Source: Sistotremastrum niveocremeum HHB9708 (taxonomy: Eukaryota > Basidiomycota > Agaricomycetes > Sistotremastrales > Sistotremastraceae). Taken from it: a DNA stretch of 64,000 nt. Location: assembly GCA_001630475.1 (NCBI GenBank), contig KV419401.1, positions 558,001-622,000 of the forward strand, written 5' to 3'. The translations under genes and the position numbers were made by a program. The notes under the pieces were generated by a model. It was not told the origin of the DNA. It made no database searches and saw only the letters and a list, made by a program, of their open reading frames with translations. Positions 4,539 through 32,704 of the stretch are shown one piece after another. Each line of letters opens with the position of its first letter. Within the stretch, counting starts at the first letter, position 1.

Positions 4539-5162
4539 ATAGGTTATACACCTGTAGTCTATACTATAAAACGAAATACACGAAGCGAGCGAAATGGCGC
4601 ATGTCATGTGAGAGAAATCGTCTGTTACTTTCTTGCTCCATCGGTGTTCAAATGAACCTTCGGACATGTCCCGGAATTCCGAACCCGCCACTTCCTGCAT
4701 TTGGATATGGTTCCGAAAGTGCCTGATAAAAGACACCACTCCCGACTCCCGAGGCTTCTTGAGACGGGAGCAAACCTTGTAATTTTCGGCGTAGATCGGA
4801 GATCGCGCAGTCTAAGGAACTAAGATACACGATTGCTCTTCCAGTTCGCTCCTATAATGCGGCTGAGCCTCTGCACTTGGCGTTCTTGATGCGTCATTCT
4901 GACGCATAGTGTCCCGCACATTATGAAAGCTGTCCACGAACGCAAATGCGCTGCGGATAGGGACCAAGTATATGGGCCATGTCCCCGGTTTCGGCAAATA
5001 CTAATCCACGCTTACGTGCCTGATCGAGAATCCAGCTACGAATACTTATCATAAGAAACAACGCTTGAAATTCAGGCTTGATTAAAGAGTTGTTTAAAAA
5101 AAGGGGTATCAGAGTAGAAGCGAAAGATTGTTCAAGACGAAATCATGCTACCTAAATTAAAC
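4539..5162. other. 3'-3' spacer between lactonase-like gene and UPO-A
   Basis: Convergent intergenic stretch containing only short shadow frames. Nothing else seen. Confidence 0.6.
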
Positions 5163-6747
5163 CTATACTCCCGAGGGGCCGGTAGGGAAAACGGCGGGAC
5201 ACCCAAACGGCTTAGCAATAGCCTGAATGAGAGTGTTAACGTTTTGTTTGAGAATCCCAGTGGCCTTGGAATAGGATGCAGGAAGATTTTGAACTGCAAG
5301 GTTGAAGTATATAGGAGAGCACTGTTACGAGCATTCAGCGTTCGAACGTGCGTATTCATGTTGAGAAACATACTGTGTCGATTGGTGCATCGAGGACGTA
5401 ATTTCCGTTTGCATCGTTTGCACCTGGTGCAATCGGGTGCGCGCTCAGGATTTGATCAACTCCTTCGCCGATCAAGTTGATGTCCCCAGGAGAGGAGCGA
5501 CGGTACCAGTCATCGGGGAAGGTTTGGTTGCGGAAGAAGGAGCCCATGACAGGGGTGCTGAGAGTCCCATCGGTTCCTTGAGATGATATGAGCAGCGTGA
5601 ATTCACGAGCAATTATTGACATACCATTTGCAAAGAAATTCAGAACAAAGGCAGCTTCACCGTAGCTTAGAGCAAACCGACCAACATGGTATTGGAGCTG
5701 GTGATTGGCAAGATGAGCTGCACGAATACGGTCGGTAACAATAGCGAATGCTTACCACAGGATCCTTGACTTGATCTTCCACGAAACGAGCAAACTTGAA
5801 TTCTTGCATGACTTTGGTGGTGACTATAGACCCATTGCCAGTGACAGGAGAATCATCACCAAATCGTCCTGTGTAAAGGAGGAGCTAAACGTGGAGCGTG
5901 TTCAGTTTCTCGATTAGCGACATGCGCAGTAAGGTACCTCATCATATAGACTGTCCTGGAAATGAACGTTGTCGCCAATTGCCGCGTCTTGTCGGGTCAT
6001 CGATACATCCCCTTCCACCGCAATTTTAACATTTTAGACTCGGTTGTCAGGGACTGCGCAGCTCACCCTCAAATCGTCCATGTTTAGAAATACCACCCGG
6101 TGGATTGGGTCCGTCTATTGCTCCAGGTAAAACGGGTACGAGAGGGGAAGCTCCGCCAATGGAGACGAGGTTCACGAATGCATTTCCCCTGGCGAGCTAA
6201 TCATCGAAGGTCAATAATAATTTTTTATCACGCGCTGACAGTGACATACCATGGCGAACCCAGCCAATGCTCCTGCGAGATCATGCTCCATGTTGAAGCC
6301 CTCCCGAACAGCTGTTATGATCTGTTCAAAGGACGCTATACCACTGAGGTAGGGCGTTTGTTAGTTGCATTTCTTCGGGCGCGTGACTTGGCTCACTTTC
6401 GTGGGAGGTAACCGTGGTTGGCAAGTGTGTTCAACCCGGCTAAAAGATTATTAGCTCGGGTCTGCTACATGAAATAGATTACTCACGGCAAGGGCCCCGC
6501 TGGTCGTTGGGTCCAGGTGCTTGGAAGGGGTGGGCATTATCTGCCAGCTATATCAGTCATAAACTGACAAGATATAAAATGCAATCATACCGGGAATCAT
6601 CTTAATGCCTGTAGCATTTGAAACTGGGGGCACAACGATGACAACGCCTTTCTGAGCTGAAGGAGTGGACGCGGCTGGAAATGCCACAGCGCTTGAGATG
6701 CACAAGAAGGCGGTAGACAATTGCAAAGCTCGTGAAGGCGACAACAT
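5163..6747 (-). CDS. Unspecific peroxygenase UPO-A (heme-thiolate peroxidase, long type)
   Basis: UPOs insert oxygen into organic substrates using H2O2; they are secreted heme-thiolate enzymes (EC 1.11.2.1, chloroperoxidase family). Ten exons give about 371 residues. There is a signal peptide (MLSPSRALQLSTAFLCIS), then HPFQAPGPNDQRGPCPGLN with the PCP motif, whose Cys near residue 70 is the heme ligand. GRFEGDVSMTRQD carries the EGD metal-site motif and the following Ser. The acid-base pair sits in GRFALSYGEAAF (Arg, then Glu seven residues later), as in the Agrocybe-type long UPOs. Two C-terminal Cys (CSPIYF and PFGCP) could form the known C-terminal disulfide. Introns split the codon after the PCP cysteine and the EGD motif. 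UPO-B and UPO-C are close paralogues. The gene looks whole. Confidence 0.9.
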
Positions 6748-10572: not shown

Positions 10573-11585
10573 TTATTTTTTCCACGGAAATTTGAACTTG
10601 TCAAAGCTCCATGAACTACGTGGAGTCGAATTTCCAGAACTCGCCCCAGCCGAAGAAAGTGTATCTATCGTCAATGACCTGAAAGGCAGACGAGATCGTG
10701 CCTGAACAGCCTGAGTCTGACGCCACAACATCTGGGCAATCTTCAGCACTTGAAGGTGCGACTCAGGCCCATTTCTACTCAAACACTGTATCGCCTCATC
10801 CCAGCTCATCAAATTCGTCACATAATCCACTTCGTCAGGCATCTTCGTATTTTGTTCCATCACCGCGTCGGGGCCTATTTGAGCGACGTACCAGAATGTG
10901 AGGTATTCTGTCCCGGTTGGTTCGGGTGCTCGAGAGCGGAATCTACGAGGTCGGGCGTGGAACATGGTTATTGCTATAGCCTCGGTGCTCGGCGGATTGG
11001 GAGAGAGGATGAGGGGATTGGCATTCGGTTCAGGGCAGTTGTGAGGTATGATGAGAGGGAGGGGCTCGCAACGATATCCAGACTGAGATTGAGTCGTGAG
11101 TCAGGGTCCAGGGAGTAGTGATAAAATCATCGACGGACCTCTTCGTATCCCTCTCTTATTGCTGTATCCTGGATACTCTCTCCGACGTCTTTTCTCCCTT
11201 TGGGGAGGAAGTACCGTTTGGACTTCTCAGAGTAGAGGACTACGACGTTGTCGGTCGAGGGTTGTATGATCACGACCCCCGCGCCAAGTTGCAGATCTTG
11301 AGCATGGAATAGGGAGTTGGGGACAGTGAAAGAAGATAGCTCTGACAGTTTGAGAGGCTCATGTTGACACGCTCGCATGTATCGATCAAGATCAAACGTC
11401 TCGTCGTCCGTTGCTTCCTGATCTATCGCAGTCCCAGGCGATGCAAGGAAAGGATTGGAGTTGTCGACTGGATGAGACTCATTCCTGCCATCCGGTATAT
11501 GCAGCTCGGAAAACGATGGCTCGATTGACTGATACGTCGACGACCGTCTGTCCTCATCGCTCGAATTCAGTTGGCCCAAATCCAT
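10573..11585 (-). CDS. Nudix hydrolase
   Basis: Nudix enzymes hydrolyse nucleoside diphosphates linked to another moiety; the box binds the catalytic metal. The protein starts at 11585 (MDLGQLNSSDEDRR) with about 90 polar, probably disordered residues. A beta-strand follows (AGVVIIQP) and then YFLPKGRKDVGES. One intron, starting GTCCGTCG right after the EE codons, completes the Nudix box on splicing: G-x5-E-x7-R-E-x2-E-E-x-G-Y is satisfied exactly (REGYEESGYRC). After the box come a proline-rich insert, an EYLTFWYVAQIG strand and a Ser-rich tail ending KFKFPWKK. It resembles fungal diadenosine- or diphosphoinositol-phosphate-type Nudix proteins, but the substrate is not determinable. Confidence 0.85.
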
Positions 11586-12052
11586 ACAAGGGAACTTACC
11601 TAAGCGGCACTTGGGGTGTTCTCAGTTCGAATTTGCTGAAGAACTGGGACATGGACATGATTGATGAGAGACAAAGGCGTTTGAGCATTGGTGAGTGCAG
11701 TGACCAGCATGCTTTCTTCGTTACGTCTTCGTCCTGCCATGCTAACCCTCGAACCACGTAAAGTCGGTTTGAAGGACGTCAACTAATCGCTGTACGTTTT
11801 CCATGCTTGTGGAAACATGGCGAGACGCAGGATTTGCTTCATCATGAGGTCGTCGCGATGTTTCGATGGCCTCGATAGAAGATGAGCGCTGAGCGTAAAG
11901 GAAATAGTGCCTTACATAATCAGTCCTCCAACTGAGGCTCCACCATCGCGCTCAGCGTCTTTGGGCCGGCACAGACACTCTACCGCATCATGATGAGGAG
12001 CAGGAGGGACGAGATTGACTCCGAGTCTTGGAGCCAATTCATCGGATTCAAA
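11586..12052. other. Left flank of the mariner insertion
   Basis: Intergenic stretch with no supported gene. A 67-codon minus-strand frame at 11912-12115 runs through the transposon terminal repeat and is rejected. Confidence 0.5.
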
Positions 12053-12107
12053 TACAGCTAACTTCAAAACGATAGGCCGTGCGAGCTGCGAGCAAACACA
12101 GGGTCCC
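12053..12107 (+). repeat. Left terminal inverted repeat of the mariner element
   Basis: Perfect 55-bp inverted match to 14968-15022; looser similarity continues about 12 bp inward. Includes the target TA. Confidence 0.95.
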
Positions 12108-12250
12108 CGCGCCACCTACCCCACTTTTTGCCTAAGCGGGAGCATATCCCAGCCTCGACTCCATCGATGATGTAACTAGTATCATAGGTAGAATAAAAAG
12201 GACGAATACTACGTGATCCCCAACCACCCCAGAATATTCAGAGCATCCTC

Positions 12251-13646
12251 ATGGCAAACTGGTATCCGCAAGACTATTGGGATCATCGGGCAGCACATCA
12301 GCGCCGAGGCGGTCAGCAGATGGCATATCTCTTGGGCCAAGCCCCGATGCCGCCATTTGGTGGCCGCGACTATGCTCTAGCCGGAATCAACGGTGCACTG
12401 GAACATCCTCATCTCGCAGGATTCGACTTGGTTCAACGTCCGCCTCCAATCGGCCAAGTGCAGCTTCTCCAACCTCTTCCAGTCCCACCTCCCATCCCAC
12501 GTCCTCAGCCCGTACCCCATGCTATGCCTGTGGCTCGGATCGAAGCTGTCCCCGAGAATCAGAAGCGTCAAATTCTCTTCCATCTACCCATTCGCCACGT
12601 CGACGCAAAGACCGGGGCCGAAAGAATCACAACGGAGGATCGCAAGATCGATGTTGCTGAGGATTCAGAGCCGCTCGATGTCCGTGAACGTGCTCTCCTT
12701 CTCATGAACATCGCAGTCAATCCAGATATTCCCACTCTGCTCACATATCGAGTCTCGAACGAACGAGCCCGCGAGTCTCACAGTTTCACCACGAAGGAGG
12801 AGGTCGCGAGAGCTATTGAGTTGTATTGGCGTGCCGTCAAGAATGCACGGTCAAAGGAGGTGTATCTCCAGATTGAAAACCAGGTAGATTCTCAGTACAT
12901 TCGTACGTGCCCTTGATTGACTCAGTGTGCAGACTCCCGTTCCGAAACCGAAAGAGAAGGAGAATCCCAAGAAGAACCTCACGCACGATGCGCTGAAGGC
13001 GATGAGCGGAGAGTTGGAGCGGGAGATTGGGATTGTTGAGAAGAAGACAGAGTGCACAGAGCACCGTGGAGAGTGGTGTTTCGTGCAGTCGCATGGAGCG
13101 CATGCAAGGTTGACACGATGGGATATCATTCGCTGGGCAAAGCTAATCGTGCGTGTACATGTGTCTCGACTTTGGCTCAGAATCTGACTGTGAGCTCAGC
13201 ACGACGGCAAGGTGGAAGAAGACTGCGACACACCTCCAAACACCCATGACTTCGCACGACTCCATGCCACCCCTCGCAAGGCCAGGGAGCTGAAATCGCC
13301 TCCCAAGAATGAAGTCCACGTCCATTTCGGCAACAACCCCTTCCAAGACATCACAAATTTCAGCCCACCAACCACATCGTCTGCTCAGAAGAAGAGGGCC
13401 CGGATTGACGAGATTGAGACGCCTCGAGTTCACGAAATCCTCCAGTCGCTGGAGCGCAGACATGCTCCCGCCCAATTCCTCAAGTATGAAGCAGCACTGG
13501 CGGCAAAGGATATCCACGACGCAACGGCAGCACACCTCTTCTCGGCAGACTACTTTGAAAGAGCCATTGGAATGACTGAGGGAGCAGCAAGGTTGTTTGT
13601 ACAGAGAGTTGCGGGACTGGTTGATGCGGCACGGGAACAAGCATGA
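12251..13646 (+). CDS. Accessory protein of the mariner element (Cys/His motif plus SAM-like C-terminus)
   Basis: Three exons (12251-12883, 12933-13148, 13200-13646) join in frame to 431 residues with no stop. The N-terminus (MANWYPQDYWDHRAAHQ) leads into a proline-rich linker around residues 65-100. The middle exon carries a CTEHRGEWC..H..H array (C-x2-H-x4-C) followed by LTRWDIIRWAKLI and later DTPPNTHDF; this resembles a putative zinc-binding module I recall from many uncharacterised Agaricomycete proteins. The C-terminal 65 residues (FLKYEAALAAKDIHD, then FERAIGMTEGAARLF) look like a small SAM-type helical bundle. A basic KKRAR sits just before it. A DNA-binding or transposition helper role is inference; it lies wholly inside the inverted repeats. 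Confidence 0.75.
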
Positions 13647-13699
13647 ACGTACAAGAATTCATTTGAGCAGTGTATTTTTATTGTATATATATGTAAACT

Positions 13700-14857
13700 T
13701 CACGCCATATGTCCACTGTGATGATACCAACCTTCAATATTCTCTGGTGTCATGGCTTCATGCACCATCTCATATAGCACTTGGAACGGGTCTCCGTCTA
13801 GTTCGCCCCGCACGTAGTTGTTTTCTCGGCGGATGAGAGCCTTCATTGCCGAGAACCCTTCTTCAATTGGGTTGAGATCTGGAGAGTATGGCGGGAGGAA
13901 AACGATGCGCATGTTGCTATGCGACAATCAATAAAAGTGATAACATGACGAGAATGGGCGCACCGAGAATGCACAAGTTCCCGAAGGGCTTCAGAGTGAT
14001 GGATGCTAGCATTGTCCATCACAAGAACCGAATTTGGGAGGGGGAATTCCTGCATATGATCCAATAGAATTTCAACAAAGTCGTTGAATAGCTCCGCATT
14101 CCATGATTTGTCGATGATATCAAGATGCAACACCCCTTCAAGCGAGATCGCTGGAAGAATTGAGTATCTGCAACTTGTCAGGCTAGCAGAGAGGACGGGA
14201 ATGGTGAGCGTACCTTGTTCCGCGAGCAAAAAAGTCCCGACGACGAGCTCTAGTGCCTGTAGTACTCCATGCCATTTTACGGCGCGTGGTATGTCGATTA
14301 CACGCAGACTCGTCGCAAAAGACGAGCTGCTCCGCGGTGTATGTGCTGGCCATCATCTCACGCCAAAGTCGACGCTGTTCATCGTCGCGCTCGGCAGCGG
14401 CAACAGACGCCTCAAGATATATCAGTCGATGTCATCAACGAAGGGAGAGATGCTACTCACCGTCTTGCGTGTCAATCCGCGTCTTTTCAGCGACCGCCCA
14501 ATTGTCTCAGCGGATACCTCGACATTACAGGCGTTCCGGAGACTCTGCTGAAGCTCAGACAAAAATATGTCTGGCTTGCGCTCAATCAGCGATTCGAGAT
14601 ACTAGAGAGATGGTCAGCATGGGCACGGGAATTTGTACAATACTCACATCGACATCCCACGACGATAGCTCTCTGGGCCTTCCGATTGGACACAACCGCT
14701 GCCCTGTCACACTCCCAGTGTCTCGAAAGTTCTTGAGGACTCGAGTGATAGCGCGCTCGCTGATCTCAGTCGCTGCTGCAATCGCCTTGACCGTCATAGT
14801 TCGCCTCATTATCACGATGAGTTCTTTCTGCGGGATAGGTATGTCGCGTCGAACCAT
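13700..14857 (-). CDS. Tc1/mariner (IS630-type) DD34E transposase
   Basis: The transposase cuts and pastes the surrounding element. It starts at 14857 ([19 protein letters not shown]) with a helix-turn-helix ([21 protein letters not shown]), then a second winged domain ([11 protein letters not shown]). Five exons join in frame through four introns of about 45-55 nt. The DDE catalytic residues are in place: D1 in [11 protein letters not shown]2 in [10 protein letters not shown], and the Glu in [12 protein letters not shown]. Exactly 34 residues separate the second D from the Glu, the DD34E signature of Tc1-like enzymes. Stop TGA is at 13700. No disabling change is seen. It converges on the accessory gene. 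Confidence 0.93.
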
Positions 14858-14967
14858 GATGAGGATAGAGTAGCCGTAGAAGTGGATTCATCGTCCTTGA
14901 GCTGGGATAGTCGTCAGATAGTGTTGCTGGTGGAGCGCCTTTGTTTATTTATGTTTGTTGGTGGGGC

Positions 14968-15022
14968 GGGACCCTGTGTTTGCTCGCAGCTCGCACGGCC
15001 TATCGTTTTGAAGTTAGCTGTA
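14968..15022 (-). repeat. Right terminal inverted repeat of the mariner element
   Basis: Perfect 55-bp inverted copy of 12053-12107 ending in the duplicated TA. Confidence 0.95.
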
Positions 15023-15098
15023 AAGAACGTCAGCCAAGCTCTCGTTCAAGCTTTCGCTCATCCACCACGTCCACGTCCACTCTGGCTCTCAACCCAGG

Positions 15099-17096
15099 AT
15101 GACATCAAAATCTAGAGTTGGCCTACAGCAGTGGCCATTAGTCCCTACGCCGTATGTGGCCTCGATGCCTAGCGCGCCGAAGAATGATGAAACGATTCTC
15201 GATATGTCCAGCCCGTATCACAAGTCGAAGAAACGGTAAACCCTTCTTCGCTATGTTCTGATGCAACACTCATTCGTATTCGAGTAGACAGGTCCCGTGG
15301 GTACGCCCAGAATTTGACGGATGTGTGTCAAGCTAACGCGAACATTTAGGTGCCTATACCATCAGGATGGAAACGCCATGTTCATCCCAGCGGATGGATA
15401 TACTTTGAGAAACCCGAGGCTCGCATCATAACCGACTACCCAATGGGTTCCCCAGAACTTCAAGCGGCATTGAACAAACTCGACAAAGAAGACTCTGAGA
15501 CCATACCTGAAGAATTCGAGCTATGGATTGGACAAAGTACGTCCTATTCTACCTATATCTGATCAATGCTTACAAGTCCGAAGGTGCACAAGACGCAGAC
15601 CTAGTGTACATTGATCACGAACGTCGTCGTGCACTTCCCAATTTGAAAAGCGATGAATCGGACATTGAAGATCATATGAAGACTGACGAAGACCGAACAA
15701 AACGTATGCGCCTTACCGCTCAAACCACATAATCCGACTTAAAGTGCGTTAGATTTGCGTCTAGAATTATCATACTGGCGATACCTCGCCGAACACCCCT
15801 GTCACGCTCGATTACCACCCAATGTCGAAGAAGATGCTCTAGCTATATTATCCTTCTTCATCCAAGGTACTTATGATATTCAAAGCCCTGAAATAAGCTA
15901 ATGGGGGTCCCAGATCGAATATTAAACCCAGAAGACAGCGTCGTTCCATTTTCGAAGGAGACCAGCAAGGAGTTGATGGATCTACTGAGCGCAATGACAT
16001 CCGACAAAAGCTACGCCTCAAATGCCAGGAACAGCCATGTCAAGACTCATTTCGTATCTCGTCTCATGGAGCGCATCGGTAGGTCTCCTTACAGTCAGCC
16101 GCGAACCAATCTTCATCGTCAATAGTGGACGAACGACTACGCCAACATTACGGTGAAGAAGGTGCTCGTCGATATCTGAAGAAAGGACGGCATGCACGAG
16201 TCATCCAAGATGCTAAATCACCCTGGGCAATCGATCTCCTGCTCGATTTCTGCATGGTGTTTCTCTTCTTCGGCACCCCATTCGCATACCTCCGCCACGT
16301 CAACGAATTCTTCATCACCGGTACGTCCCCCTCCCTCCCTTCCCCTCTCTCTTTCTGATGAAAGTACTTATCGCGATGCAGCGCTGGGTCGTACGGAGAC
16401 AATCAGCGAAAAGTGGCGCGCATTCGTGGATGAGAACGTCACAGATTGGTCGGATACGAATCTCGTGGCTACAGTCCTTGTCAGCGCTGCAGTAGGCTTT
16501 CTAGCCGTACCCGGTATCGACGATATTTCCCGCCTCTTTGCTCTATTCTCCATTTTATTCGCTCTTTCAAGTCTTATCGCAGGACTGTTGAATGCTTGGC
16601 AACATCAACATGAGTCGCGTGCGAGTCTCGAATTGACCATCATCGTACGCCCCCCCCTCTCTATTCCCTTCGATGTCAGGATTGACATGATATAGATGAA
16701 CTTCTTCTCACAAGCCGAACGGCCCCTCCGAACATACAAAATCCTCGCCCTCCTCCTCGCACTCCCCATGGCCCTCCTAATCTGGGCAACAGTCTCATTC
16801 GCAGTCTCCATAACCATCTTCTCGTGGCACGGTCTCGACACCACATTCGTTCAGAACAACCCGGATTTCAAGAGTCGTACTCAGGATGGTGTACCTGAGG
16901 CTTTTGAGTTTACGAAGTATACGGGGATTGCGACGACGAGTGTTGCGTGTGTTGGAGGGTTGTTGGTTATCATTTCGTTGGTTTATTTTTGGCATGTGAG
17001 TTTTTCTTCGTTTTTTGGTGGGAGAAGAGGTGCCGATGTTGTTTATTGTAGGTGTGGACACCGCCGAATCCGAATAGGTGGCATAAGCGGAAATGA
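15099..17096 (+). CDS. WW-like domain membrane protein, unknown function
   Basis: This belongs to a family of Agaricomycete proteins I recognise only as hypothetical. The N-terminus is polar; then VPIPSGWKRHVHPSGWIYFEK resembles the start of a WW domain (two Trp, Gly, aromatic pair) and is followed by LVYIDHERRR, the usual partner motif. Several introns of about 50 nt follow. The C-terminal half has hydrophobic segments: DLLLDFCMVFLFFGTPFAYL, an ATVLVSAAVGFLAVPG region, and ILALLLALPMALLIWATVSF plus TSVACVGGLLVIISLVYFW near the end. The last exon gives VWTPPNPNRWHKRK. The first frame needs a 13-nt exon (15288-15300) between exon 1 and exon 3 to keep RQVPWVPIPSG in frame. The mariner end lies 76 bp upstream, so the promoter may have been altered. 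Confidence 0.8.
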
Positions 17097-20365: not shown

Positions 20366-21232
20366 ACTCCTTCAAGGGTTCTAGATGAGTAAGGATCTGT
20401 GCCCAATAACGGAGAGCCTTCGCTCAGGTATGTCGATGGTAGCCCTTAAGGCCTTCGTTACAATGTAAGAATGTATAGGGCGCCTTGAAGGAAGCTGAAT
20501 TCCGAGTCACACCCAAAATGCGAGTACGTATCGAGCAGATATTTTCGCACAATCGCACTGAGCAGTTGCCTCTTCTCATCGTCAATAAAATCAAGTTGAA
20601 CAAAATACTAGTATTGTCGGCTACACTGCAGTTTCTGCCAATGTGAACGTCAAGGACGCATGTGTCTTGTATAAAATATCAATGTACTGTTTTGACTAGT
20701 TCATCAGCTTCAATAAGGCATATCGATGCAAATAAACGGTCGACAGGAATGGTCGTTGGTGAGTGACTGTGACATCATTATCATGACACCGCGTGATGTC
20801 ACAACAACAACAACAAATTCAATTAACGTCCTCGAGGCACAGAGGTGCCTATGGTAGACGGCTAACTAAGGTACAAAGCAAAGCAACGTGTGTCACATCA
20901 CGCAACGCTCAACCTCGACCGACCGCATCCACATCCACATCCGCACTTGCATCTGTAGCTCATTCAGAACGCATCTTCCACACATTTCTCTTAATTGCAA
21001 CCTCCATTGCCCACACTGGTTTGGAGCCGCCGACTGCCGCTTAACGAACAACCGCTTTGATTCTTCAACCCTTGAAAGCAAGTTCAGTCTGAACAACCAG
21101 CAACTCGAGCTCGCACCAACGAGGGAGCGTAAGTCCTGTACTGGTGATTTTCAAGCCTTTGGCATATTCATACGATTACTTCTAGGAGAAAACATTCGAA
21201 TCCATCGCCAGAAAAGTTTCTGAATCAGGGTC
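20366..21232. other. Intergenic upstream of the MYND pair
   Basis: No gene seen. A short CAA microsatellite occurs at about 20800. The last 350 bases may hold the leader of the first MYND gene. Confidence 0.5.
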
Positions 21233-22471
21233 ATGACGCGTCACTGCGTAGTCTGCGGGGTCCTAACGAAAAAGGCTTGCACCGGATGCTCGAGAACTCC
21301 TTACTGCAGCAAGAAATGTCAAAAGGAGAACTGGGTCCTACACATCCTCGAGTGCGACAACCCCGGACGCGAAATCACTACCGCCGACCGACTTGCAGCG
21401 GAGGTCGCCCATCCTGGCCAGATTATCCACGAACAGACATGGACCGATTATGGATTCTTTTCTCTGGCTAGTCGCGAAGATGGCACGGCCCTTCACAACG
21501 TTTATCATGACATTTTCATGATCGTTGGCATAAAAGCTCCCATGATCCATCAATGGCGTCTCGAAGGCACACTCCACACCGCACTCATCGAGATATACAA
21601 AGCAACAGGATCTCTGCTTGATCATGCCAACCTCATTTGGCTCTCTCAGCATCCCGATCTCTTTGACCCTGAGATTGTTGGCCGCAGCGCCGAACAGAGA
21701 CGAGCCGCTGTTATGACAGTGGTGTGGGCGCATCTAGGTGGTTCGGAGGACACTACTCATGAAGAAATGGAAGAGGAAGTTGCGAAGTGGCCACTGTACA
21801 AGCAGATCTGCTGGGAGTTCTACATCATCGTCTTCAGTCATTGCAGCCCCGCAGTGAACAGCCCGACTACCTGGCTCGCTTTCGGCTTCTGCCTTTTCAC
21901 CGATAATCCGGTTCGTCAGCCAGATGGTCCTCTCGGTTATCCGCTCCGCCCATTGTATTCGCAGCTCGTTCAGCGATGCACTTTCGACGAATTTTACGAA
22001 GCGTTCACTACGGCATCCCTCATTGCGCTCATGGACAAGTATGGATTGAAGGACGAACGCACTTCCATGCCTCAAGCCCAGGAATTCGAACGCCATCTCT
22101 CCCAATCTCCCGATCGATACCCGGATGTATGGGGTCTCAAGTCCTTCGTCCTGTTCCCTGATCAAGGTCCTATGCCATCCCTCATCCTCTTCGGATTCCA
22201 CAATTGCCGCGACGATAAGGAAATTAAGCAGCTCAGCGGAGTCTATTTCACTCTGTTTGAAGACTTGGAAGTCCCACCTTTCCAAATCCTGGAGGCTGCA
22301 GAGAAGGATCGTCTCTTCGAATTAGTCACAACGCTTCCCGGGTACCACCTCAGTAACACCAACAAACGATTTCTACGCCGCGTCCTCAACACAAAAAATC
22401 GCCTTATCTTGTCGAAGGATTTCAAACTCACTCCCGAAACGATGAAGAAAATCCTACCTCGCCGAACTTGA
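21233..22471 (+). CDS. MYND-type zinc finger protein (tandem copy 1)
   Basis: A single uninterrupted exon codes for 412 residues. Residues 5-40 form a complete MYND finger: CVVCGVLTKKACTGCSRTPY followed by C-x3-C, W-x2-H-x3-C, giving the C-x2-C, C-x2-C, C-x3-C, H-x3-C set that binds two zinc ions. MYND domains usually mediate protein binding. The remaining 370 residues are alpha-helical looking (GREITTADRLAAEV, WDFYFI-like blocks) and shared along the whole length with the next gene, but I know no function for that part. No signal peptide or membrane segment is present. The absence of introns contrasts with its neighbours and may reflect the family or a retrocopy origin. Confidence 0.9.
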   Translation: MTRHCVVCGVLTKKACTGCSRTPYCSKKCQKENWVLHILECDNPGREITTADRLAAEVAHPGQIIHEQTWTDYGFFSLASREDGTALHNVYHDIFMIVGIKAPMIHQWRLEGTLHTALIEIYKATGSLLDHANLIWLSQHPDLFDPEIVGRSAEQRRAAVMTVVWAHLGGSEDTTHEEMEEEVAKWPLYKQICWEFYIIVFSHCSPAVNSPTTWLAFGFCLFTDNPVRQPDGPLGYPLRPLYSQLVQRCTFDEFYEAFTTASLIALMDKYGLKDERTSMPQAQEFERHLSQSPDRYPDVWGLKSFVLFPDQGPMPSLILFGFHNCRDDKEIKQLSGVYFTLFEDLEVPPFQILEAAEKDRLFELVTTLPGYHLSNTNKRFLRRVLNTKNRLILSKDFKLTPETMKKILPRRT

Positions 22472-23003
22472 CCTCCTTATATTCGTCGTCAACACTTTTC
22501 CACAGCGCCATACATCCTTTGGCTACTTCTTTCATGTGTCTAATCTTCTTGAGAATGTTCCTCGTCCTTGCTATGTATAATACTAGTGTATACAATTTTC
22601 TGGTATCCTGAATCTTGCTGATGGTATGTGGCCCGTCGGAGTTTCAAGAGGTTGAGCTGGCAACGGAGGCGTTGGCTCCGTCGGAAAGCTACTGTCATCG
22701 CCATCACATACATCCTCAAGCTCAGACTCAAATTTCCAAGCTGCCAGATTCATATCAAGATACTGCATAGCCTATTATTCTAGAAACGTCGCCTGTCCGC
22801 CACAGCGTCACCTCCGAACCCAGTCTCTCTCGAGCCCTAGAAAGACGCACCATCGACGGTCCATTACACGAGCCACACTTTCGAGGAGGCAGAGACCAAT
22901 TTGAACCGACCCCAGAGCCTTGTAAGCTGTGTGCTTCAAGTACTGGATGCTTTACTGATGCTTTATCCAGAATCTCATTCTCTCGCATTCGACGAAACCG
23001 AAC
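22472..23003. other. Spacer between the MYND pair
   Basis: Regulatory spacer for the second copy. Nothing else seen. Confidence 0.5.
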
Positions 23004-24200
23004 ATGCCAAACTGCGTAGTCTGTAGAACCCCTACGAAAAAGAAGTGTCATGGATGCTCGATTACTCCCTACTGCAGCAGGCCTTGTCAGAAGAAAGATT
23101 GGATGGTCCACGTCGTAGTTTGTCATCGGCCTGGCCGAGAAATCACAACCGCAGACCGCCTCGCTGCCATTGTCCTCGCCGGCCACGCAGAATCCGAGGA
23201 TGCGACATTATCTGATTATGGCTTCGTCAACCTTTCTTGTCGCGAAGATTGTGTAACCCTCTGTCACATCTATCGCGAGGTCTTTACGATCCTTGACATC
23301 AAACCAAGTTCGCTTCATCGTTGGCGTCTCGAGGACACCCTCTATACCAATCTTCTCAAAGCGTATGAGGAGGCAGGAACTAAAGTGAATCTCGCTCATC
23401 ATGCATGGCTGCGTCAGCGTTCCAACATCTTCGATCCCGCGACGGCTGATTCTCCAGCACAACTTTGGAGTCGCGACGTCATCTCCAAACTTGCGACACA
23501 TGTTGTAGGAATGGCAAAGAACTCCTCCGAAATCGTATCGATGTTAATGATGGCTTCTTGGCCCCCTTATATGAAGCTTTGTTGGGATTTCTATTTCATC
23601 ATCTTCAGCGGAAGCAAACCCACGGTACACAAGCCCGAGCCATGGATCAAGTTTGGATTCTGTGTCGACGATAAAATCGATGCCGTGCCCTGGGAAGGAC
23701 CTATACAGCATTTGTACGCTGAGCTCATACGACGCTGCACTTTCGAAGAATTTTGTAAAGCATTTAACACTTCATGCCTCGTGGATCTCATGGACAAGCA
23801 TGGGCTCAAGGAGCGTCGTCTTGCCCTTGCCGGAGCCGCAGATTTCGAGCGAATACTCTCACAATCTCCCTATCACATCCCTTGCGTTTGGGGCCTGAAA
23901 TCCCTCGTGCGATATCCTTCTGAAGTTCAGCCATCTCACTTGTTCCCATTCGGTTTCGCCAACTGTCGCACCGAAAAAGATCTCATGCATCTCGCACGCG
24001 TCTACGCGACTCTTTTTACGGAGAAGACCATCCCACTCTTTCGAATACAATACGCTGCAGAGCAGGATCGTCTCTATCAGCTCGTCATGAGTATTCCTGA
24101 ATTCAGTCCTTCTGCCACAGAGAAGCGCTTCTTACGACGTGCCCTCAGGACCCAGAACAAAGCGAGATTCGGTTCCAAACTCCCTCCCTGCTACACTTAA
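23004..24200 (+). CDS. MYND-type zinc finger protein (tandem copy 2)
   Basis: A single exon codes for 398 residues, collinear with the previous gene: the MYND finger at residues 4-38 (CVVCRTPTKKKCHGCSITPY then C-x3-C, W-x2-H-x3-C) and the shared GREITTADRLAA junction, the SLIxLMDKxGLKxxR block and the LRTxN C-terminus. Both copies are intronless, on the same strand and about 530 bp apart, so they are a tandem duplication. They have diverged clearly at protein level, so it is not fresh. The retrotransposon begins 63 bp after this stop codon and probably replaced its native 3' flank. Confidence 0.9.
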   Translation: MPNCVVCRTPTKKKCHGCSITPYCSRPCQKKDWMVHVVVCHRPGREITTADRLAAIVLAGHAESEDATLSDYGFVNLSCREDCVTLCHIYREVFTILDIKPSSLHRWRLEDTLYTNLLKAYEEAGTKVNLAHHAWLRQRSNIFDPATADSPAQLWSRDVISKLATHVVGMAKNSSEIVSMLMMASWPPYMKLCWDFYFIIFSGSKPTVHKPEPWIKFGFCVDDKIDAVPWEGPIQHLYAELIRRCTFEEFCKAFNTSCLVDLMDKHGLKERRLALAGAADFERILSQSPYHIPCVWGLKSLVRYPSEVQPSHLFPFGFANCRTEKDLMHLARVYATLFTEKTIPLFRIQYAAEQDRLYQLVMSIPEFSPSATEKRFLRRALRTQNKARFGSKLPPCYT

Positions 24201-24263: not shown

Positions 24264-25139
24264 TGTAAGGTATCCTTACCTTGTCTAGCCGTTAAGTTGC
24301 CAACATTCGTCTTCGTTATCATTTTACTTCGTCGAGTCCAGCCTCGGAGATAAGGATCCGAAAAGTCAACGTGATCACGTTGAAAACTTCGAACTCCGCC
24401 CTTCGCACTCGAACAATGTCCTCTCCCTCTCCCTTCGTCATCATCATTCCAATCTCGATTTCACAATCAATCTATCTATATCCTCGATAATCACATTCAT
24501 TTCCAAGCCCTACAAACCCGTCCCCGTCGCATTCGACTTCAATCTCCGCCACCTCCATGCAGCCCATCCATGCGACAATCATCTAGTTTCAGTAATGTTC
24601 GACACTCTTTAAGATTCGGAGTCATCCCATCATCCAACGCCACATAACCGACATCTATTTATCATCATCCCGCTGTTCCGCTGTCACATATCACCACATG
24701 CCATCCTCTCGACTCGTCCAATTCACACGGGAGATCCGCCTGTCGACGTCATTCATCAGCTTTGATTGGTCGGAAACTTCTCTTATGGTTCTATCTTAGT
24801 TGCGCAGGCCTTTTTGTATCGTAAACATGTTGCTTCATCAGTCCTGTCACCCCTCATGTAGACTTTGGCCAAGTCATGTTACCAGATAACTCTCTCACAC
24901 TTTTTCATTGGTCAGTAGTTCGTATTCTAGCTACTATAAGTACAGCCATGTATTGACCGATGTAGAGTATCAATTTTATGTCCCTTTCCACCCTCTAAAA
25001 TCATCAGAACGAAAATCACCTCAAAAATATTCTTCTTCTCTTTATTTTCTCTTGGTTCGCATTATCGTCGGCCCCAGCGTCGAATTCTTGGTACGAGTTA
25101 TCTTAGGATTTCTCAGTCGACCTGCCAGTCAGACTTACA
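24264..25139 (+). repeat. 5' LTR of the Gypsy element
   Basis: Begins TGTAAGG and ends CTTACA; matches 31824-32699 line by line at a fixed offset of 7,560 bases with no difference found. An ACTATAAGTACAG promoter-like sequence lies near 24932. Confidence 0.95.
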
Positions 25140-25141
25140 AG

Positions 25142-25158
25142 TGGAGCCCACCGCGAGG
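25142..25158 (+). other. Candidate primer-binding site
   Basis: TGGAGCCCACCGCGAGG starts with the TGG expected opposite a tRNA CCA end, two bases after the 5' LTR. The tRNA type was not identified. Confidence 0.5.
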
Positions 25159-25576
25159 GGCCCATTTTGTGAACCATTTGTTTGTTGATTCATCGAGTTC
25201 CATACAGCATTTCGTGGTGTCGATTAAGTACGAAGGCCCAAACCTGTCCTCGCTCTGCAATCACTTGTGTGTAGTACTTGTTCTTGCCTTACGGCGTTTA
25301 CTTGTGCGCTGCATCGTTGTCGGGAATACCTTCAGAAACGTCGTCAGCCAGGGTCGCAAATCGTACCCGTGGGCATCCGCAGTATCTCGCTCTGTTAGTC
25401 CTTTTCGAATTCCTTTTGCACTATTCCCCCTCTGGCTTTGATCCTTCCTTCGGGAACTCTTGCTTTACAGGACTCAGGTTTTACAGACTTCAAATCAGCT
25501 CACCTCACCGAATCATACCGTTCGAACACGGTAGTGGGGATCAGCGGCTTCCCCGTGAGCTTTTCTGACCTAGTCC

Positions 25577-28360
25577 TTGCGTTATAAAAATTCTAATTAC
25601 ATCATTTCTACCCCAATCCTCACCCGAGCACGTTCACGAGCGATCCAGGCATCTTCAGACCTGTTGATTCAAGACATAGGCGACACAGGCGAATTTCTAC
25701 TACACGAGGGCGAAGGATCATCTGCGGATTCAAGCTCTAACGACGAATATCCCCTTAGCCGGCTTTATCTCGAAACACCACTTCCAGACGACCTCAACGA
25801 CTTCGATTACATCCCTTCAAGTCCCACTCCATCCTCCAGCAAAAAATCTCTCTCAACGACGTCCCAATCTCCACCCATTCATCTTGCGCCACCTCCTTAC
25901 ACTCGCGAAAACTCATTGTCTGATCTCATCACTCCATCGGAAGAACCTACTACTACGCCTTTGACTCCTACTCCTTCACCGGATAACGGACAACAAGAGT
26001 TTAGGCTTCATCCAGCTGAGTTTCCAAACAATCTCGAGAACTATAGTGACATCACGGCGTCTAGTTTAAACGACGACGACCTTGCAGGACTCTTTCCTCT
26101 ACTAGATTCACCACCAATTGTCAGCCAATCACTTCCTCCAACATCCACAGTCACCATGGCTCTTCCTTTCGTCATGCCCCTCCCACACCTCAAAGAAGCA
26201 CCATACTTCGATGGAAAATCCCGCCATCTCACCAAATTTCTTAACGAATACGAAGCTCTTGCAACGCGTGCCACGCTCACGGCAGTTGAGAAGTGTAGAC
26301 AAGTCATCAATTATACAAAGACGTCTGAAGCCGAATTCTGGAAAACACTCGAAGGCTACAAAAACAATATTTGGGCCGACCTTCGGACTGAAATCATCGC
26401 TTCGTATCCAGGAGCCGGAGGCGCCACAAGATATATCGTTGAAGATCTTCGAGATCTAGCTAAGTCTCAGTCACGCCATAAAATCCGTCACACTGAAGCA
26501 CTTGCCGATTACACCAGGAAGTATCGTGCTATACTCGGTTGGCTCGAAGTCAACGAACACGTAGGCGCCGAAGCTCACAAACATTACCTCAAAGGCTTCG
26601 ATAAAAAGCTTCGTGCCCACATTGATCTACGACTCAAGATCCAATTCCCCAATAAAAGTCAGCGCTCGATCTTCACTGTCACTCAGCTTTACGATGCTGC
26701 CAAAGTCAAAATCTCTAGCTCTGATCCTCTCAACACTCGGATTCATTCTCAAAAGAAGAAACATCGCCATCATCGTCATCGCACCAGCTCCCGCCGAAAC
26801 GATTCAGAGTCCGAGACTGATTCTGAATCAGATGCATCGGTAGATGAGTCCTCGAGCTCAGATTCTGACGAAGAAACTCGGCAAAAGAAGAGTCGAAAGA
26901 AAAGAGATCGGTCTTCTTCGCCAAGACGTTCCTCAGCTGAGTCTTCTTCTAATGTCAAACCCGAGACCAATGACAGCAATATCGCTCTTCAGCAGCTCAT
27001 TGCTCGGATTGATCAGCAGTCACAAGCCGCTCAGCAACAAACTCACGCTTTCACCAACGCCATCGCTTCCCTCTCCAACGTCATTCGTCCTCAAAATTCT
27101 CCTCTCGTCTCCGTCCAATCGACAGTCCCCCTCAACTCCGGCAGTACCTTCACGTTCACCGGATGCGCATTCTGTCGCCAAGAAGGTCATCAAATTCGGT
27201 CATGTCCTCATGTACAAGAATATATTCGTAATGGCAAAGCTATTCGAGATGCTAATAACAAGATCGCAACCCCCGCAGGGAATCCGATACCACCTGGCAT
27301 GCGTGGTCAATCCATGAAGGATCGCCTTGATACTTGGCTAGCTGCAAATCCCACGCTCCGAGCGCCAACCATCGAAGCGCCTGCCACTCAGCTACTCATG
27401 TTTGACGCTTACCTCGACAATCCAGCGCCTGTTTTTACCTCTGCCAAAATAGAAGAGGTTCCCTATGGAACTACAGATGAGTCTGATGACAATATCGATT
27501 TGTTAACTGCAATTGTTGCTGAATTTCAGGCGAAGAAGAAAGCAAATGCAAAATCGAAAGATGCGCAGCCTTCGTCTCATAACACACGAGCGAATCCTCA
27601 GCCGACGTCTCCACTTCCGCCCTCCAATCCCCTCCCTTCGACTTCTTCGTCAAATCCTCCTGTTCCTCCTCGTCCTATCCTCCCTCGATACAAGTACCAA
27701 ACTCCCATCGAAGATCCAGCCCTTCTTGGCGAAGTCATGGAAATGATCTTGAAGAATAAGCTCGGAGAAATCCAGACAAAGCACCTACTTGCGATAAGTC
27801 CTCCGTTACGTGCTCGCATTGTAGAACTTCTGAAACCTCAGCGAATGGATTTAGCATCAGTCAATCTCACGGAACCCCACATGCATGGCGATTACATTGT
27901 TGCCGATCACTCTCTCCCACTTCAAGAAGTCTCAACAGTTGTAAACGGGAAATTCAACGAATGGGGCGTACTCGATGATGGTTCCTCAATCATTGTCATT
28001 CGTGAAGATCTATGGAAAGAAACAATGCTTCCGATCTCGCCATCTCATGCAATGCGAATGGAAGGAGCCGATACGAGTAAAAGTGTCACCCTGGGAAGTG
28101 TTCAAGATCTTCGTCTCACAGTTGGTGAAATCACAGTTTTAGTTCAAGCACAGGTCGTCAAAAATGCACCGTTCCGACTTCTTCTAGGACGACCGTTCTT
28201 CTCGGTCACGCAAGCAACTCGTAAAGATACTTCAAGCGGTGATTATCTCTTAACCATTCGAGACCCAAATCCTCCCCATCACGTCATCACCATTCCTACT
28301 CGAAATCGTATGCACGGTCAAGCATATCCGCCAGAGTCATCTTTTCATCAAGGGAATTGA
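25577..28360 (+). CDS. Gag-protease region of the Gypsy element
   Basis: A long open frame (about 900 residues) with an acidic, Ser/Pro-rich N-terminus, a capsid-like retrotransposon gag region, a basic and Ser-rich stretch, a zinc knuckle (CAFCRQEGHQIRSC) and, near the end, an aspartic-protease-like domain around GVLDDGSS. The exact initiation codon is not certain. Confidence 0.85.
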   Translation: MRYKNSNYIISTPILTRARSRAIQASSDLLIQDIGDTGEFLLHEGEGSSADSSSNDEYPLSRLYLETPLPDDLNDFDYIPSSPTPSSSKKSLSTTSQSPPIHLAPPPYTRENSLSDLITPSEEPTTTPLTPTPSPDNGQQEFRLHPAEFPNNLENYSDITASSLNDDDLAGLFPLLDSPPIVSQSLPPTSTVTMALPFVMPLPHLKEAPYFDGKSRHLTKFLNEYEALATRATLTAVEKCRQVINYTKTSEAEFWKTLEGYKNNIWADLRTEIIASYPGAGGATRYIVEDLRDLAKSQSRHKIRHTEALADYTRKYRAILGWLEVNEHVGAEAHKHYLKGFDKKLRAHIDLRLKIQFPNKSQRSIFTVTQLYDAAKVKISSSDPLNTRIHSQKKKHRHHRHRTSSRRNDSESETDSESDASVDESSSSDSDEETRQKKSRKKRDRSSSPRRSSAESSSNVKPETNDSNIALQQLIARIDQQSQAAQQQTHAFTNAIASLSNVIRPQNSPLVSVQSTVPLNSGSTFTFTGCAFCRQEGHQIRSCPHVQEYIRNGKAIRDANNKIATPAGNPIPPGMRGQSMKDRLDTWLAANPTLRAPTIEAPATQLLMFDAYLDNPAPVFTSAKIEEVPYGTTDESDDNIDLLTAIVAEFQAKKKANAKSKDAQPSSHNTRANPQPTSPLPPSNPLPSTSSSNPPVPPRPILPRYKYQTPIEDPALLGEVMEMILKNKLGEIQTKHLLAISPPLRARIVELLKPQRMDLASVNLTEPHMHGDYIVADHSLPLQEVSTVVNGKFNEWGVLDDGSSIIVIREDLWKETMLPISPSHAMRMEGADTSKSVTLGSVQDLRLTVGEITVLVQAQVVKNAPFRLLLGRPFFSVTQATRKDTSSGDYLLTIRDPNPPHHVITIPTRNRMHGQAYPPESSFHQGN

Positions 28361-28369
28361 TTCGTCCCA

Positions 28370-31300
28370 GTGAGCCATTCTATTCCCACGAGACATTTTC
28401 CTTCGCTGCTGTATACCCCCAGAACACGCCAGAAAATTCAAAATATCATGAAACAATTTCCTTCGACTTCCCTTCTTTGCCAGCATCGCTTCTTGCATCT
28501 CGTCCATCATATTCCGACTCGTCGATACCTCTTCTTGGTCCTGCATCCGTTCCACAAGCTTTCAAGACTCTTCATTCACTTCTTGGTCAAGGCCTTTCGA
28601 CTCACGAGCTTACGCTCCTCATTCCTCCCGAAAACTCCACAAAGCGAACCGGTGTTGTCTACAAGAAAAAGTACAAACCTGTCAAAAACCAAATCAAGCC
28701 CGTCTCCACCACTCTTCCCGAAAAGTACCGAATCAACAGACGGATCGTTGGCAATCCCCTTGAAGATCTCCCACCAATTCCTGCAGATCCACCTCCTTTT
28801 ACGCCAGGCAAACGTCTCACGCAAGAAAGACTCGACGCAATGGAGCTGAATAAAGATGGATTTATGTTGCCCGCTGAGTTAAAGCTTCTTCATCATATAC
28901 TCAAGACTAACGAAATGTATTTCGCTTGGGACGAAAGCGAGAAAGGAAAATTCAAGGACTCCTACTTCGACCCTCTCATCATTCCCACAATCGAACACGT
29001 CCCTTGGCAACAGAAAAACATCCCCATCCCTCCAGGAATTCTACAAGATGGTCTTCTGTGTCATCAAGAAGGACGGAAAATCACTCCGAATTGTCCACGA
29101 CCTTCAGCCACTCAACGCCGTCACCATTCGAGACTCTGGTGTCCCTCCTCATATTCTAGAAATCGTCGAAGAACTAGCCGGACGCTCTGTATATTCCCTT
29201 CTCGATTTATTCGTCGGCTACGACCATCGCTCCCTCCATCCGGAATCAAGAGATCTCACAACGTTCCAAACTCCTCTCGGTACCATGCGACTCACCGTCC
29301 TACCTATGGGAATGGCAAATTCGGTTGCAATATTCCACGGTGATGTAACCTTCATTCTTCAACCGGAAATTCCTCATGTTGCTAGGCCCTTCATCGACGA
29401 CGTCACAATCAAAGGCCCAGAAACACGTTATGAACAGTCCGACGGCACGTACAAGATGGATCCAGAAAACCCAGAACGTCGACAGTTCATGACGGACCAT
29501 ATGCGAGATATGGGCAGAGTGATACATCGAGTGGGAAAAGCTGGCGGTACATTCTCAGGCAAGAAAGGTTTCTTCTGTTCCCCAAGAATTAATGTATTAG
29601 GCAATGTCTGTCTTTACGAAGGTCGTCTTCCCGACTCGTCAACAATCCAGAAGATCTCCGATTGGCCCACCCCTACATCCATCACCGAAATCCGCGGATT
29701 CTTAGGAGTCTGTGGTGTTGTCCGCCACTTCATTCTCAATTTCTCCGCCAAAACTCGTCCTCTCATCGATCTCGTCCGCAAAGACGTACCTTTCATCTGG
29801 ACCGACGCTCAAGAACAAGCAGTTGCAACTCTCAAAGACGATGTCATCAAATCCAAGGCTCTTCGACCCATCAGCTACTCGGTCGATCGAGAAGTTATCC
29901 TCGCTGTGGATACTTCAAATATTGCCATCGGATTTATTCTATCGCAAATTGGAACGGACAAGAAGCGATACCCAGCAAGATTCGGTTCTATTGCGTTGAA
30001 TACGAGAGAGTCGAGATATTCCCAAGCTAAGTTGGAGCTTTACGGATTATTTCGTGCTTTGCACTCGCTGAAATTATATTTGGTCGGAATCAAGAAACTT
30101 GTTGTGGAAGTCGACGCAAGCTATATCAAGGGTATGATAAACAATCCAGATATCGTCCCAAATGCCGCTACGAATCGCTGGATCACTGGCATTCGTCTAT
30201 TCGACTTCACCCTTCGACATGTCCCTGCCTCACGCCATCAAGGTCCGGACGGTCTCTCTCGTCGACCTCCTGTTCCAGAAGATCCGCCGGAGCCTGCAGA
30301 GGAAGCAGAAGATTGGTTAGATCATCAACTTGAGTCTTATCCATTTATTTGCGTACCTTCGTTCACTATCCACCCAGTCCTCGCCAATTTCTCTGACGGA
30401 ATTCCCACCTCCTCCGAAATCCATATCCATTTCCAACGACTCGACACCATCAAGATCTACCTCACCACACTCCAGCTCCCAACGAATCTCGATCCTAGGG
30501 CCCTTCGCAAGTTCCTCACCGAAGCATCAAGATATTTTGTGTACGAGTCAAAGCTTTACCGAAGAGTCAAAGGCGGAGATCATCAGCTATGTGTTACCTC
30601 AGCCGAACGATTAGCATTGCTCACCACGGCGCACGATTCTTTAGGCCATAGAGGATTCTTTCCTGTTCGACAAACCCTCCTCAAGCGATTCTGGTGGCCG
30701 TCGATGGCCGACGATATTAAATGGTTCCTGAAGACGTGTCCTCAATGTCAAACTCGGCAATTCATTCGGATTCACTTACCCCCAACCATCTCGCCACCAG
30801 CTTCTCTCTTTGCGAAAGCCTACATCGACACTATGCACATGCCAAAACACCACCACGTTCAATATATCATCCAGGCTCGCTGCAGCCTCACTTCCTACGC
30901 CGAATACCGCATCTTACGAAAGGAAAACACTCGGACGATTGCCGCATTCATCTTTGAAGAGTTGTTATGCAGATGGGGTTGTCTAGTCGAAATTGTGACA
31001 GACAATGGAGCAGCTTACGTGGCGGCTATGAAGGAACTCCGAGATAAGCATCATATCACTTGGATTCGCATTTCGCCGTATCACTCTCAATCAAATGGCG
31101 CAGTTGAACGTACGCACCGGGATATTCGAGAATCCATTGTCAAAGCTTGCGATGGCGACTTATCTAAGTGGCCTTCCGTAACTCCATATGTATTTTGGTC
31201 TGACCGAGTCACAGTTCGTAAAGCTACAGGCAAATCGCCTTTCGAAATGGCGCATGGAGTCCAACCCACCCTTCCCTTCGACATCTCCGAAGCCACATTC

Positions 31301-31828
31301 CTCGGACCAGCCATCACTCGACAACTCTCACACAACCAACTCGTCGGAATACGTGCCCGCCAACTCCAAAAGAGACCCGCCGACCTCGCTCACATGCATG
31401 ACCAAATTCTTCGTCGTCGCAAACTCTCTTCCGAAGAATATTCTCGACGCTTTCATTCTTCGCTCAGGACCTTCGATTTCAAGCATGGAATGATTGTATT
31501 GGTTCGCAATATTATTCTAGACAAAGGAATAGGAATCAAGACCGAACCTCGATACATTGGACCCTATATCGTAGTCAGGAAAACAGTCGGCGGCGCATAT
31601 GTGTTATCCGAACTCACCGGTGCAGTCATATCCTCTCGTTTTAGTGCCAATCGACTCGTTCCATTTTATTCCAGACTCTCCGACAACATCCTCATTATTC
31701 CCAATCCTCTCGTCTTTGAACCCGACCCTCGTTTCACCAGCGAAGACCCTGCATTCGAAGACCTCGGCCCTCTGTTCGAAGGAGATCTGACTGAGCCCAG
31801 TTCAGATCTAAGTGATGAGGGAATGTAA
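28370..31828 (+). CDS. Pol region of the Gypsy element (RT, RNase H, integrase)
   Basis: Contains reverse transcriptase motifs (LDLFVGYDHR, FIDDV), an RNase H-like segment (AVDTSNIAIGF), an integrase zinc-binding HHCC region ending TCPQCQTRQ, the DDE-type integrase core (VTDNGAAYV, SQSNGAVERTH) and a C-terminal basic domain. The order RT-RNase H-IN is that of Ty3/Gypsy. Treated as an element part, approximate bounds. Confidence 0.85.
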
Positions 31829-32699: not shown

Positions 32700-32704
32700 A
32701 TATC

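What the first reader, a model, noticed from the sequence alone, without database searches (positions are those of the whole stretch)
12053..15022. A mariner transposon carrying a second, intact gene
Tc1/mariner elements normally hold one transposase gene. Here a 431-codon spliced gene with a Cys/His motif and a SAM-like C-terminus lies inside the same perfect inverted repeats, tail to tail with the transposase and 53 bp from it. Both are undamaged, which suggests both have been kept under selection as a two-protein system. Sequence shows the layout; the helper role (DNA bridging, target choice, silencing escape) is inference.
Basis: partly seen in the sequence, partly recalled or inferred. 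Interest (0 to 1): 0.75.

Follow-up and report, generated by a model that had tools for sequence, protein, structure and literature searches.

The report
Mariner transposon with a second gene
A small jumping gene of the mariner type, apparently in a fungus, carries an intact second protein gene of no known family next to its usual enzyme, packed so tightly between the element's ends that it looks like part of the element, though one copy cannot show that the second protein helps it jump.

Summary
A 2,970-bp element (12053-15022) is bounded by 55-nt perfect inverted repeats with TA at both ends. It holds an intact five-exon IS630/Tc1-type transposase (322 aa, DD34E) and, tail to tail with 53 bp between stop codons, an intact three-exon 431-aa gene. 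The second protein matches no Pfam or NCBIfam family. It has a Pro-rich start, a stretch modelled at modest confidence in beta-grasp/PB1-like order, a C-x2-H-x4-C-x4-H-x2-H motif, a basic KKRAR cluster and a helical end; the SAM label is not confirmed. The gene nearly fills the interior (143 bp from its repeat, 53 bp from the transposase), which favours a resident gene over random capture. Selection and a two-protein system remain unproven: no fungal genome could be searched, and one intact copy is not evidence of selection. Multi-gene Tc1/mariner elements are published (ciliates; Fanzor-bearing elements), as are accessory genes in other DNA transposons of basidiomycetes, so this is a new variant of a known kind. 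Best reading: an element-encoded nuclear adaptor that helps the transposase or counters silencing (0.5); main rival: a captured passenger (0.28).

The parts
12053..12107 (+). left terminal inverted repeat, beginning TACAG (TA = presumed target duplication)
   Evidence: 55/55 complementary to the right arm; unique terminal 26-mer
12108..12250 (+). 143-bp spacer, presumed promoter and 5' leader of the second gene
   Evidence: 49% GC; function inferred
12251..12883 (+). second gene, exon 1 (aa 1-211): Pro-rich N-terminus, then a stretch modelled as strand-strand-helix-strand-strand-helix-strand (aa 106-210)
12933..13148 (+). second gene, exon 2 (aa 212-283) with C-x2-H-x4-C-x4-H-x2-H (aa 252-268)
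   Evidence: no structure model was made of this exon
13200..13646 (+). second gene, exon 3 (aa 284-431 and stop): basic KKRAR (aa 347-351), helical C-terminus
13647..13699 (.). 53-bp gap between the two stop codons, 25% GC, presumed shared bidirectional terminator
   Evidence: role inferred
13700..14857 (-). transposase gene, five exons (14857-14648, 14601-14461, 14410-14214, 14167-13964, 13916-13700), 322 aa, D150, D234, E269 (DD34E)
14858..14967 (-). 110-bp spacer, presumed promoter of the transposase gene
   Evidence: function inferred
14968..15022 (-). right terminal inverted repeat, ending CTGTA on the + strand

Best explanation
This is one complete, potentially autonomous Tc1/mariner (IS630-Tc1) DNA transposon that encodes two proteins: a DD34E transposase and a 49-kDa accessory protein. 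Shown: the ends, both intact genes, their layout, and the family of the transposase. Inferred: the accessory protein is nuclear (KKRAR), folds into an interaction domain (beta-grasp/PB1-like), a small metal-binding knuckle and a helical, perhaps oligomerising, C-terminus, and serves the element, either by binding the transposase or its ends to assist transposition (as the second protein of PIF/Harbinger elements is reported to do) or by keeping the element from being silenced. The convergent arrangement would give each gene its own promoter next to one repeat and a shared AT-rich terminator.
For: Both genes lie inside 55/55 perfect repeats with TA ends. Transposase: IS630 model E 1.9e-49, DDE_3 E 1e-30, three catalytic acids with 34 residues between the second and third. 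The second gene has no internal stop and canonical introns. It nearly fills the interior (143 bp to the repeat, 53 bp to the transposase stop), as expected of a resident gene rather than a captured fragment with flanking host DNA. The exon 1 model has the order E-E-H-E-E-H-E with block-mean pLDDT of 54-76 over it, and PB1 and Ras-association domains are among its weak structural matches. Precedents of element-encoded helpers or accessory genes: PMC9710019 (passages), PMC12730594 (abstract and passages), PMC7325037 (section 8), PMC3627910 (passages).
Against: Only one copy is known. No relative of the second protein was found in any collection searched, none of which is a fungal collection. No domain is supported by sequence, and structural matches are not significant (best E 0.12 for exon 1, a de novo design, and 8.1 for exon 3). 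The transposase has basic clusters of its own, so a need for a nuclear carrier is not indicated. Many Tc1/mariner elements move with the transposase alone (general knowledge).
Confidence: 0.5

Rival explanations
1. Passenger: the second gene is an ordinary fungal host gene captured whole by a mariner element, carried but not used by it.
For: Capture of genes by DNA transposons is documented (Fanzor1 in Mariner and other elements, PMC3627910; TET/JBP genes moving between transposon lineages in fungi, PMC12730594). A recent capture would also be intact. From memory only, proteins of this general build (Pro-rich start, Cys/His motif before 'L-T-x-x-D-I-x-x-W-A', helical end) seem common as hypothetical proteins of mushrooms; no call tests this.
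Against: The gene lies close to the repeat (143 bp) and the transposase (53 bp) with little spare flanking DNA. No homolog lies elsewhere in the 64-kb window (best other hit E 1.5), which is a small sample of the genome.
Confidence: 0.28
2. Chimera: the second gene is the cargo or former core of another mobile element, joined to this mariner by recombination, so the two proteins belong to different elements.
For: Mixing of accessory genes between transposon lineages in basidiomycetes is published (PMC12730594). The protein has no known family.
Against: None of the six other inverted-repeat pairs of 14 nt or more listed for 11500-15600 brackets the second gene alone; direct repeats were not looked at there.
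Confidence: 0.12
3. Repressor: the accessory protein limits transposition of its own element (dose control) rather than helping it.
For: By layout it can be transcribed separately from the transposase; self-limiting proteins are known in other transposons (general knowledge).
Against: No direct evidence; it does not resemble the transposase or any detected DNA-binding domain.
Confidence: 0.1

Closest known systems
Tc1/mariner elements with one gene (IS630-Tc1-mariner group)
   Same: TA ends, inverted repeats, DDE_3 transposase with DD34E and N-terminal HTH matches
   Different: carries a second, unrelated 431-aa gene
Ciliate TBE and Tec elements (PMC7325037, section 8 read)
   Same: Tc1/mariner-type DD34E transposase plus further genes, one of them in the opposite orientation in Tec; TBE includes a zinc-finger protein
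   Different: both have three ORFs; Tec has ~700-bp repeats and a site-specific recombinase. Here two spliced genes, 55-bp repeats, and no detected recombinase or known zinc finger
[quoted passage not shown] PMC3627910, passages)
   Same: Mariner transposase and extra genes inside TA-flanked repeats
   Different: the extra proteins there are Fanzor1 or recognisable enzymes; this one matches no family
PIF/Harbinger two-gene elements (PMC9710019 and PMC4482050, passages)
   Same: transposase plus second protein encoded in one small element; the second protein is reported to be needed for nuclear localisation of both
   Different: different transposase family, TWA target, second protein with Myb/SANT/MADF, which was not detected here
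Fungal DNA transposons with TET/JBP genes (PMC12730594, abstract and passages)
   Same: accessory gene within a fungal DNA transposon, proposed to counter silencing
   Different: Mariner is not among the lineages listed in its abstract and the word does not occur in its text; no TET/JBP match here

Membership tests
Tc1/mariner (IS630-Tc1-mariner) element | TA target duplication | tested here: inconclusive
   TA at both outer ends; no empty allele available to prove duplication
Tc1/mariner (IS630-Tc1-mariner) element | terminal inverted repeats | tested here: met
   55/55 nt
Tc1/mariner (IS630-Tc1-mariner) element | IS630/Tc1-type DDE transposase with DD34E or related triad | tested here: met
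   NF033545 168.8 bits against a cut-off of 100; DDE_3 106.9 against 28.6; D150, D234, E269
Tc1/mariner (IS630-Tc1-mariner) element | N-terminal paired HTH domains with GRPR-like linker | tested here: inconclusive
   HTH_33 25.8 bits against 25, but HTH_Tnp_Tc3_2 25.7 against 31.5, HTH_32 26.6 against 33.7 and HTH_23 18.3 against 24.6, all below their cut-offs; GRPR read in the sequence, its meaning recalled
Tc1/mariner (IS630-Tc1-mariner) element | placement in a named subfamily by phylogeny | not tested
   no fungal reference transposases at hand; bacterial IS630 matches at 26.6-34.9% identity in the 8 rows listed of 1174 plasmid records
Single-gene mariner | transposase is the only gene | tested here: not met
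   431-aa second gene
PIF/Harbinger two-gene element | second protein with Myb/SANT/MADF domain | tested here: not met
   the only Pfam listing for the second protein up to E 10 is YnaL at E 0.59, below its cut-off
Fanzor-bearing Mariner | Fanzor/TnpB motif with C4 zinc finger in the second protein | tested here: not met
   no such Pfam match; only three cysteines in 431 aa
TET/JBP-bearing fungal transposon | TET/JBP dioxygenase domain | tested here: not met
   no such Pfam match
PB1 / beta-grasp domain (aa 106-210) | PB1 sequence profile or significant structural match | tested here: inconclusive
   no Pfam match for the cut-out segment; predicted strand/helix order fits; PB1 domains at ranks 3 and 17 of the 50 rows listed of 534, E 0.26 and 0.85
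SAM domain (C-terminus) | SAM sequence profile or significant structural match | tested here: inconclusive
   no Pfam match for the cut-out segment; helical C-terminus at block-mean pLDDT of 48-69 from residue 71 of the model on; 1pk1 SAM match last of five, E 9.8

The most novel reading that the evidence does not exclude
A lineage of fungal Tc1/mariner elements works as an obligate two-protein system, in which a new family of scaffold protein (beta-grasp domain, Cys/His knuckle, helical oligomerising end) is needed for transposition or for escape from silencing: a kind of helper not described for this superfamily in the papers seen here, where the extra genes are those of ciliate elements and of Fanzor-bearing ones.
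Probability: 0.3. Interest if true: 0.7.

Novelty: new variant of a known kind. Interest (0 to 1): 0.45.

Why it matters
Tc1/mariner transposases are generally regarded as self-sufficient, which is why they serve as tools across kingdoms (general knowledge). A conserved partner protein in fungi would mean that part of the superfamily has become dependent on, or regulated by, a second element-encoded protein, and would give a handle on how fungal transposons assemble, choose targets or escape silencing. If the gene is only a passenger, it is a clear case of whole-gene capture by a very small element.

Tried and rejected
Exact scans of the terminal 24-mer in viral contigs and genome contigs gave none; one degenerate motif pattern for each protein in viral contigs gave none; tblastn of the second protein in plasmids gave none. 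These are prokaryote, plasmid and viral collections, so the misses say little about fungi.

Known accessory families (TET/JBP, Fanzor, Myb/SANT, methyltransferase, kinase) were set aside for the second protein by lack of any Pfam or NCBIfam match. SAM label: not accepted, not excluded. Sequence search of the PDB gave noise for the second protein (E 7 and 7.7) and Sleeping Beauty at E 0.016 as the best for the transposase.

An insertion inside a gene was looked at: joining the flanks with one TA gives no open frame of 50 codons or more across the site, so it looks intergenic; a Nudix domain lies to the left on the minus strand.

Eight sought a fungal Tc1/mariner element with a second gene; they held 0, 4, 0, 23, 28, 49, 618 and 30 papers, of which 0, 4, 0, 23, 15, 20, 15 and 20 were listed. 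I saw none in the titles and abstract beginnings listed; this covers open-licence papers only. Passages of PMC12810828 were also seen and not used. A lead not resolved: the Marasmius oreades Mariner family MarorTcMar-18 is 3,972 bp (PMC9674265, passages), longer than a one-gene element needs; its gene content was not stated in those passages, and the name does not occur in PMC8290104.

Full report
What is there. The window holds one complete transposon at 12053-15022. Its ends are 55-nt inverted repeats that match at 55 of 55 positions; the terminal 26-mer occurs nowhere else in the window with up to three mismatches and in none of 100 shuffles. Both ends carry TA, as in Tc1/mariner elements; since no empty allele was available, duplication of that TA is not proven.

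The transposase. On the minus strand, five exons joined by four GT-AG introns of 46, 50, 46 and 47 nt give 322 aa without a stop. It matches the IS630 transposase model (E 1.9e-49, 168.8 bits against a cut-off of 100) and Pfam DDE_3 (E 1e-30), with HTH matches before it, of which HTH_33 is just above its cut-off and HTH_32, HTH_Tnp_Tc3_2 and HTH_23 are below theirs. The catalytic residues D150, D234 and E269 stand with 83 and 34 residues between them, that is DD34E. Bacterial IS630 proteins on plasmids match at 26.6-34.9% identity in the 8 rows listed of 1174 records. This is a Tc1/mariner element in the broad sense; its subfamily was not placed.

The second gene. On the plus strand, three exons (12251-12883, 12933-13148, 13200-13646) with introns of 49 and 51 nt give 431 aa. 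The stop codons of the two genes are 53 bp apart, in a stretch of 25% GC. As for chance: the 239-codon open run around exon 1 is only moderately unusual (13 of 1000 shuffles reach it), while 431 open codons along one path have a probability of about 4e-9 by composition, before any correction for choice of splice sites. Codon usage ranks the proposed frame first of six, but one antisense frame is close (0.196 against 0.153 bits per codon), and the table was made from four window sequences only, so this is weak support. I accept it as a real gene.

What the second protein looks like. Neither the whole protein nor three cut-out segments match any Pfam family (the only listing is YnaL at E 0.59, below its cut-off); there is no NCBIfam match and only noise in the PDB by sequence (E 7 and 7.7). 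Structure prediction from single exons, without an alignment, gives a disordered start and, at block-mean pLDDT of 54-76, the order strand-strand-helix-strand-strand-helix-strand over aa 106-210. That is the order of a beta-grasp domain of the PB1/Ras-association kind (recalled). Of 534 Foldseek matches up to E 10 the best 50 were listed and none reached 0.001; PB1 domains of Cdc24 and p62 rank 3 and 17 and a Ras-association protein (NORE1A) ranks 12, with E from 0.26 to 0.85, while the two top matches are de novo designs and many others are unrelated folds. This is suggestive and not significant. Exon 2 holds C252-x2-H255-x4-C260-x4-H265-x2-H268, which could bind zinc (inference). Exon 3 holds KKRAR at 347-351, a possible nuclear signal, and ends in several helices (mean pLDDT of the whole model 53.0).

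Does it belong to the element? For: it lies between the perfect repeats, nearly fills the space that the transposase leaves (143 bp to the left repeat, 53 bp to the transposase), and is intact. A captured host locus would usually bring flanking DNA (general knowledge). Against, or open: this is one copy. Intactness of both genes in one copy shows only that this copy, or its parent, is young; it is not evidence that selection kept the second gene. No fungal genome could be searched: the window's own genome is not held, and the collections that were scanned are of prokaryotes, plasmids and viruses (second protein; transposase; terminal repeat; no related locus in any of these eight).

How it most likely works. 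Shown: the element has what is needed for cut-and-paste movement, namely matched ends and an intact DD34E transposase. Inferred: each gene is transcribed inward from a promoter beside its repeat, the two transcripts meet in the AT-rich 53-bp gap, and the second protein acts in the nucleus as an adaptor for transposase or chromatin. The nearest worked-out analogy is PIF/Harbinger, whose second protein binds the transposase, an interaction reported as necessary for nuclear localisation (PMC9710019, passages); the nearest fungal analogy is the TET/JBP genes carried by several DNA transposon lineages, thought to counter silencing but not tested by experiment (PMC12730594, abstract and passages). 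The transposase has basic clusters of its own, so nuclear import need not be the reason. I give 0.5 to an element-serving helper, 0.28 to a captured passenger, 0.12 to cargo from another element and 0.10 to a repressor.

What is known. Tc1/mariner elements with more than one gene are in print: ciliate TBE (three ORFs, one a zinc-finger protein) and Tec (three ORFs, one in reverse) (PMC7325037, section 8 read), and Mariner elements with Fanzor, endonuclease and methyltransferase genes, several of them in algal viruses (PMC3627910, passages). I found no domain in the second protein that it shares with them; their sequences were not compared directly. In the listings of eight literature queries on this point I saw no fungal Tc1/mariner element with a second gene (four of the eight were listed in part); the library holds open-licence papers only, so absence from print is not claimed. 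One lead is a 3,972-bp Mariner family in Marasmius oreades (PMC9674265, passages), whose gene content I did not see.

Host. No call names the organism. Short GT-AG introns, Peroxidase_2 paralogs and MYND genes fit a filamentous fungus, probably a basidiomycete; this is inference.

Verdict. It is a new variant of a known kind, with an accessory protein of no known family, worth one quick search of fungal genomes. Interest 0.45; if the pair proves conserved, 0.7.

Noticed in passing
24264-32700: An LTR retrotransposon with two identical 877-nt direct repeats (24264-25140 and 31824-32700; TGTAAG...CTTACA with ATATC on both sides if the last A is counted as target duplication) and two long open frames with protease (first) and reverse transcriptase, RNase H and integrase zinc-binding (second) matches: a very recent insertion.
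   Followed up: partly
5162-6347, 51381-53107, 57052-58492: Three diverged paralogs, read on the minus strand, with Peroxidase_2 (PF01328) matches: one peptide from each gave E 2.3e-06 (above the cut-off), 1.4e-05 and 0.021 (both below it). Probably heme-thiolate peroxidases or peroxygenases.
   Followed up: partly
21224-22468 and 22959-24197: Two neighbouring MYND-finger open frames in the same orientation, apparently a tandem duplicate just before the LTR element.
   Followed up: partly
14208-14870 (+): A 221-codon open frame antisense to the transposase; probably a by-product of its codon pattern.
   Followed up: no
33768-33802 and 60123-60157: A 35-nt inverted repeat pair, 86% complementary, 26 kb apart; may be two copies of a short repeat.
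   Followed up: no
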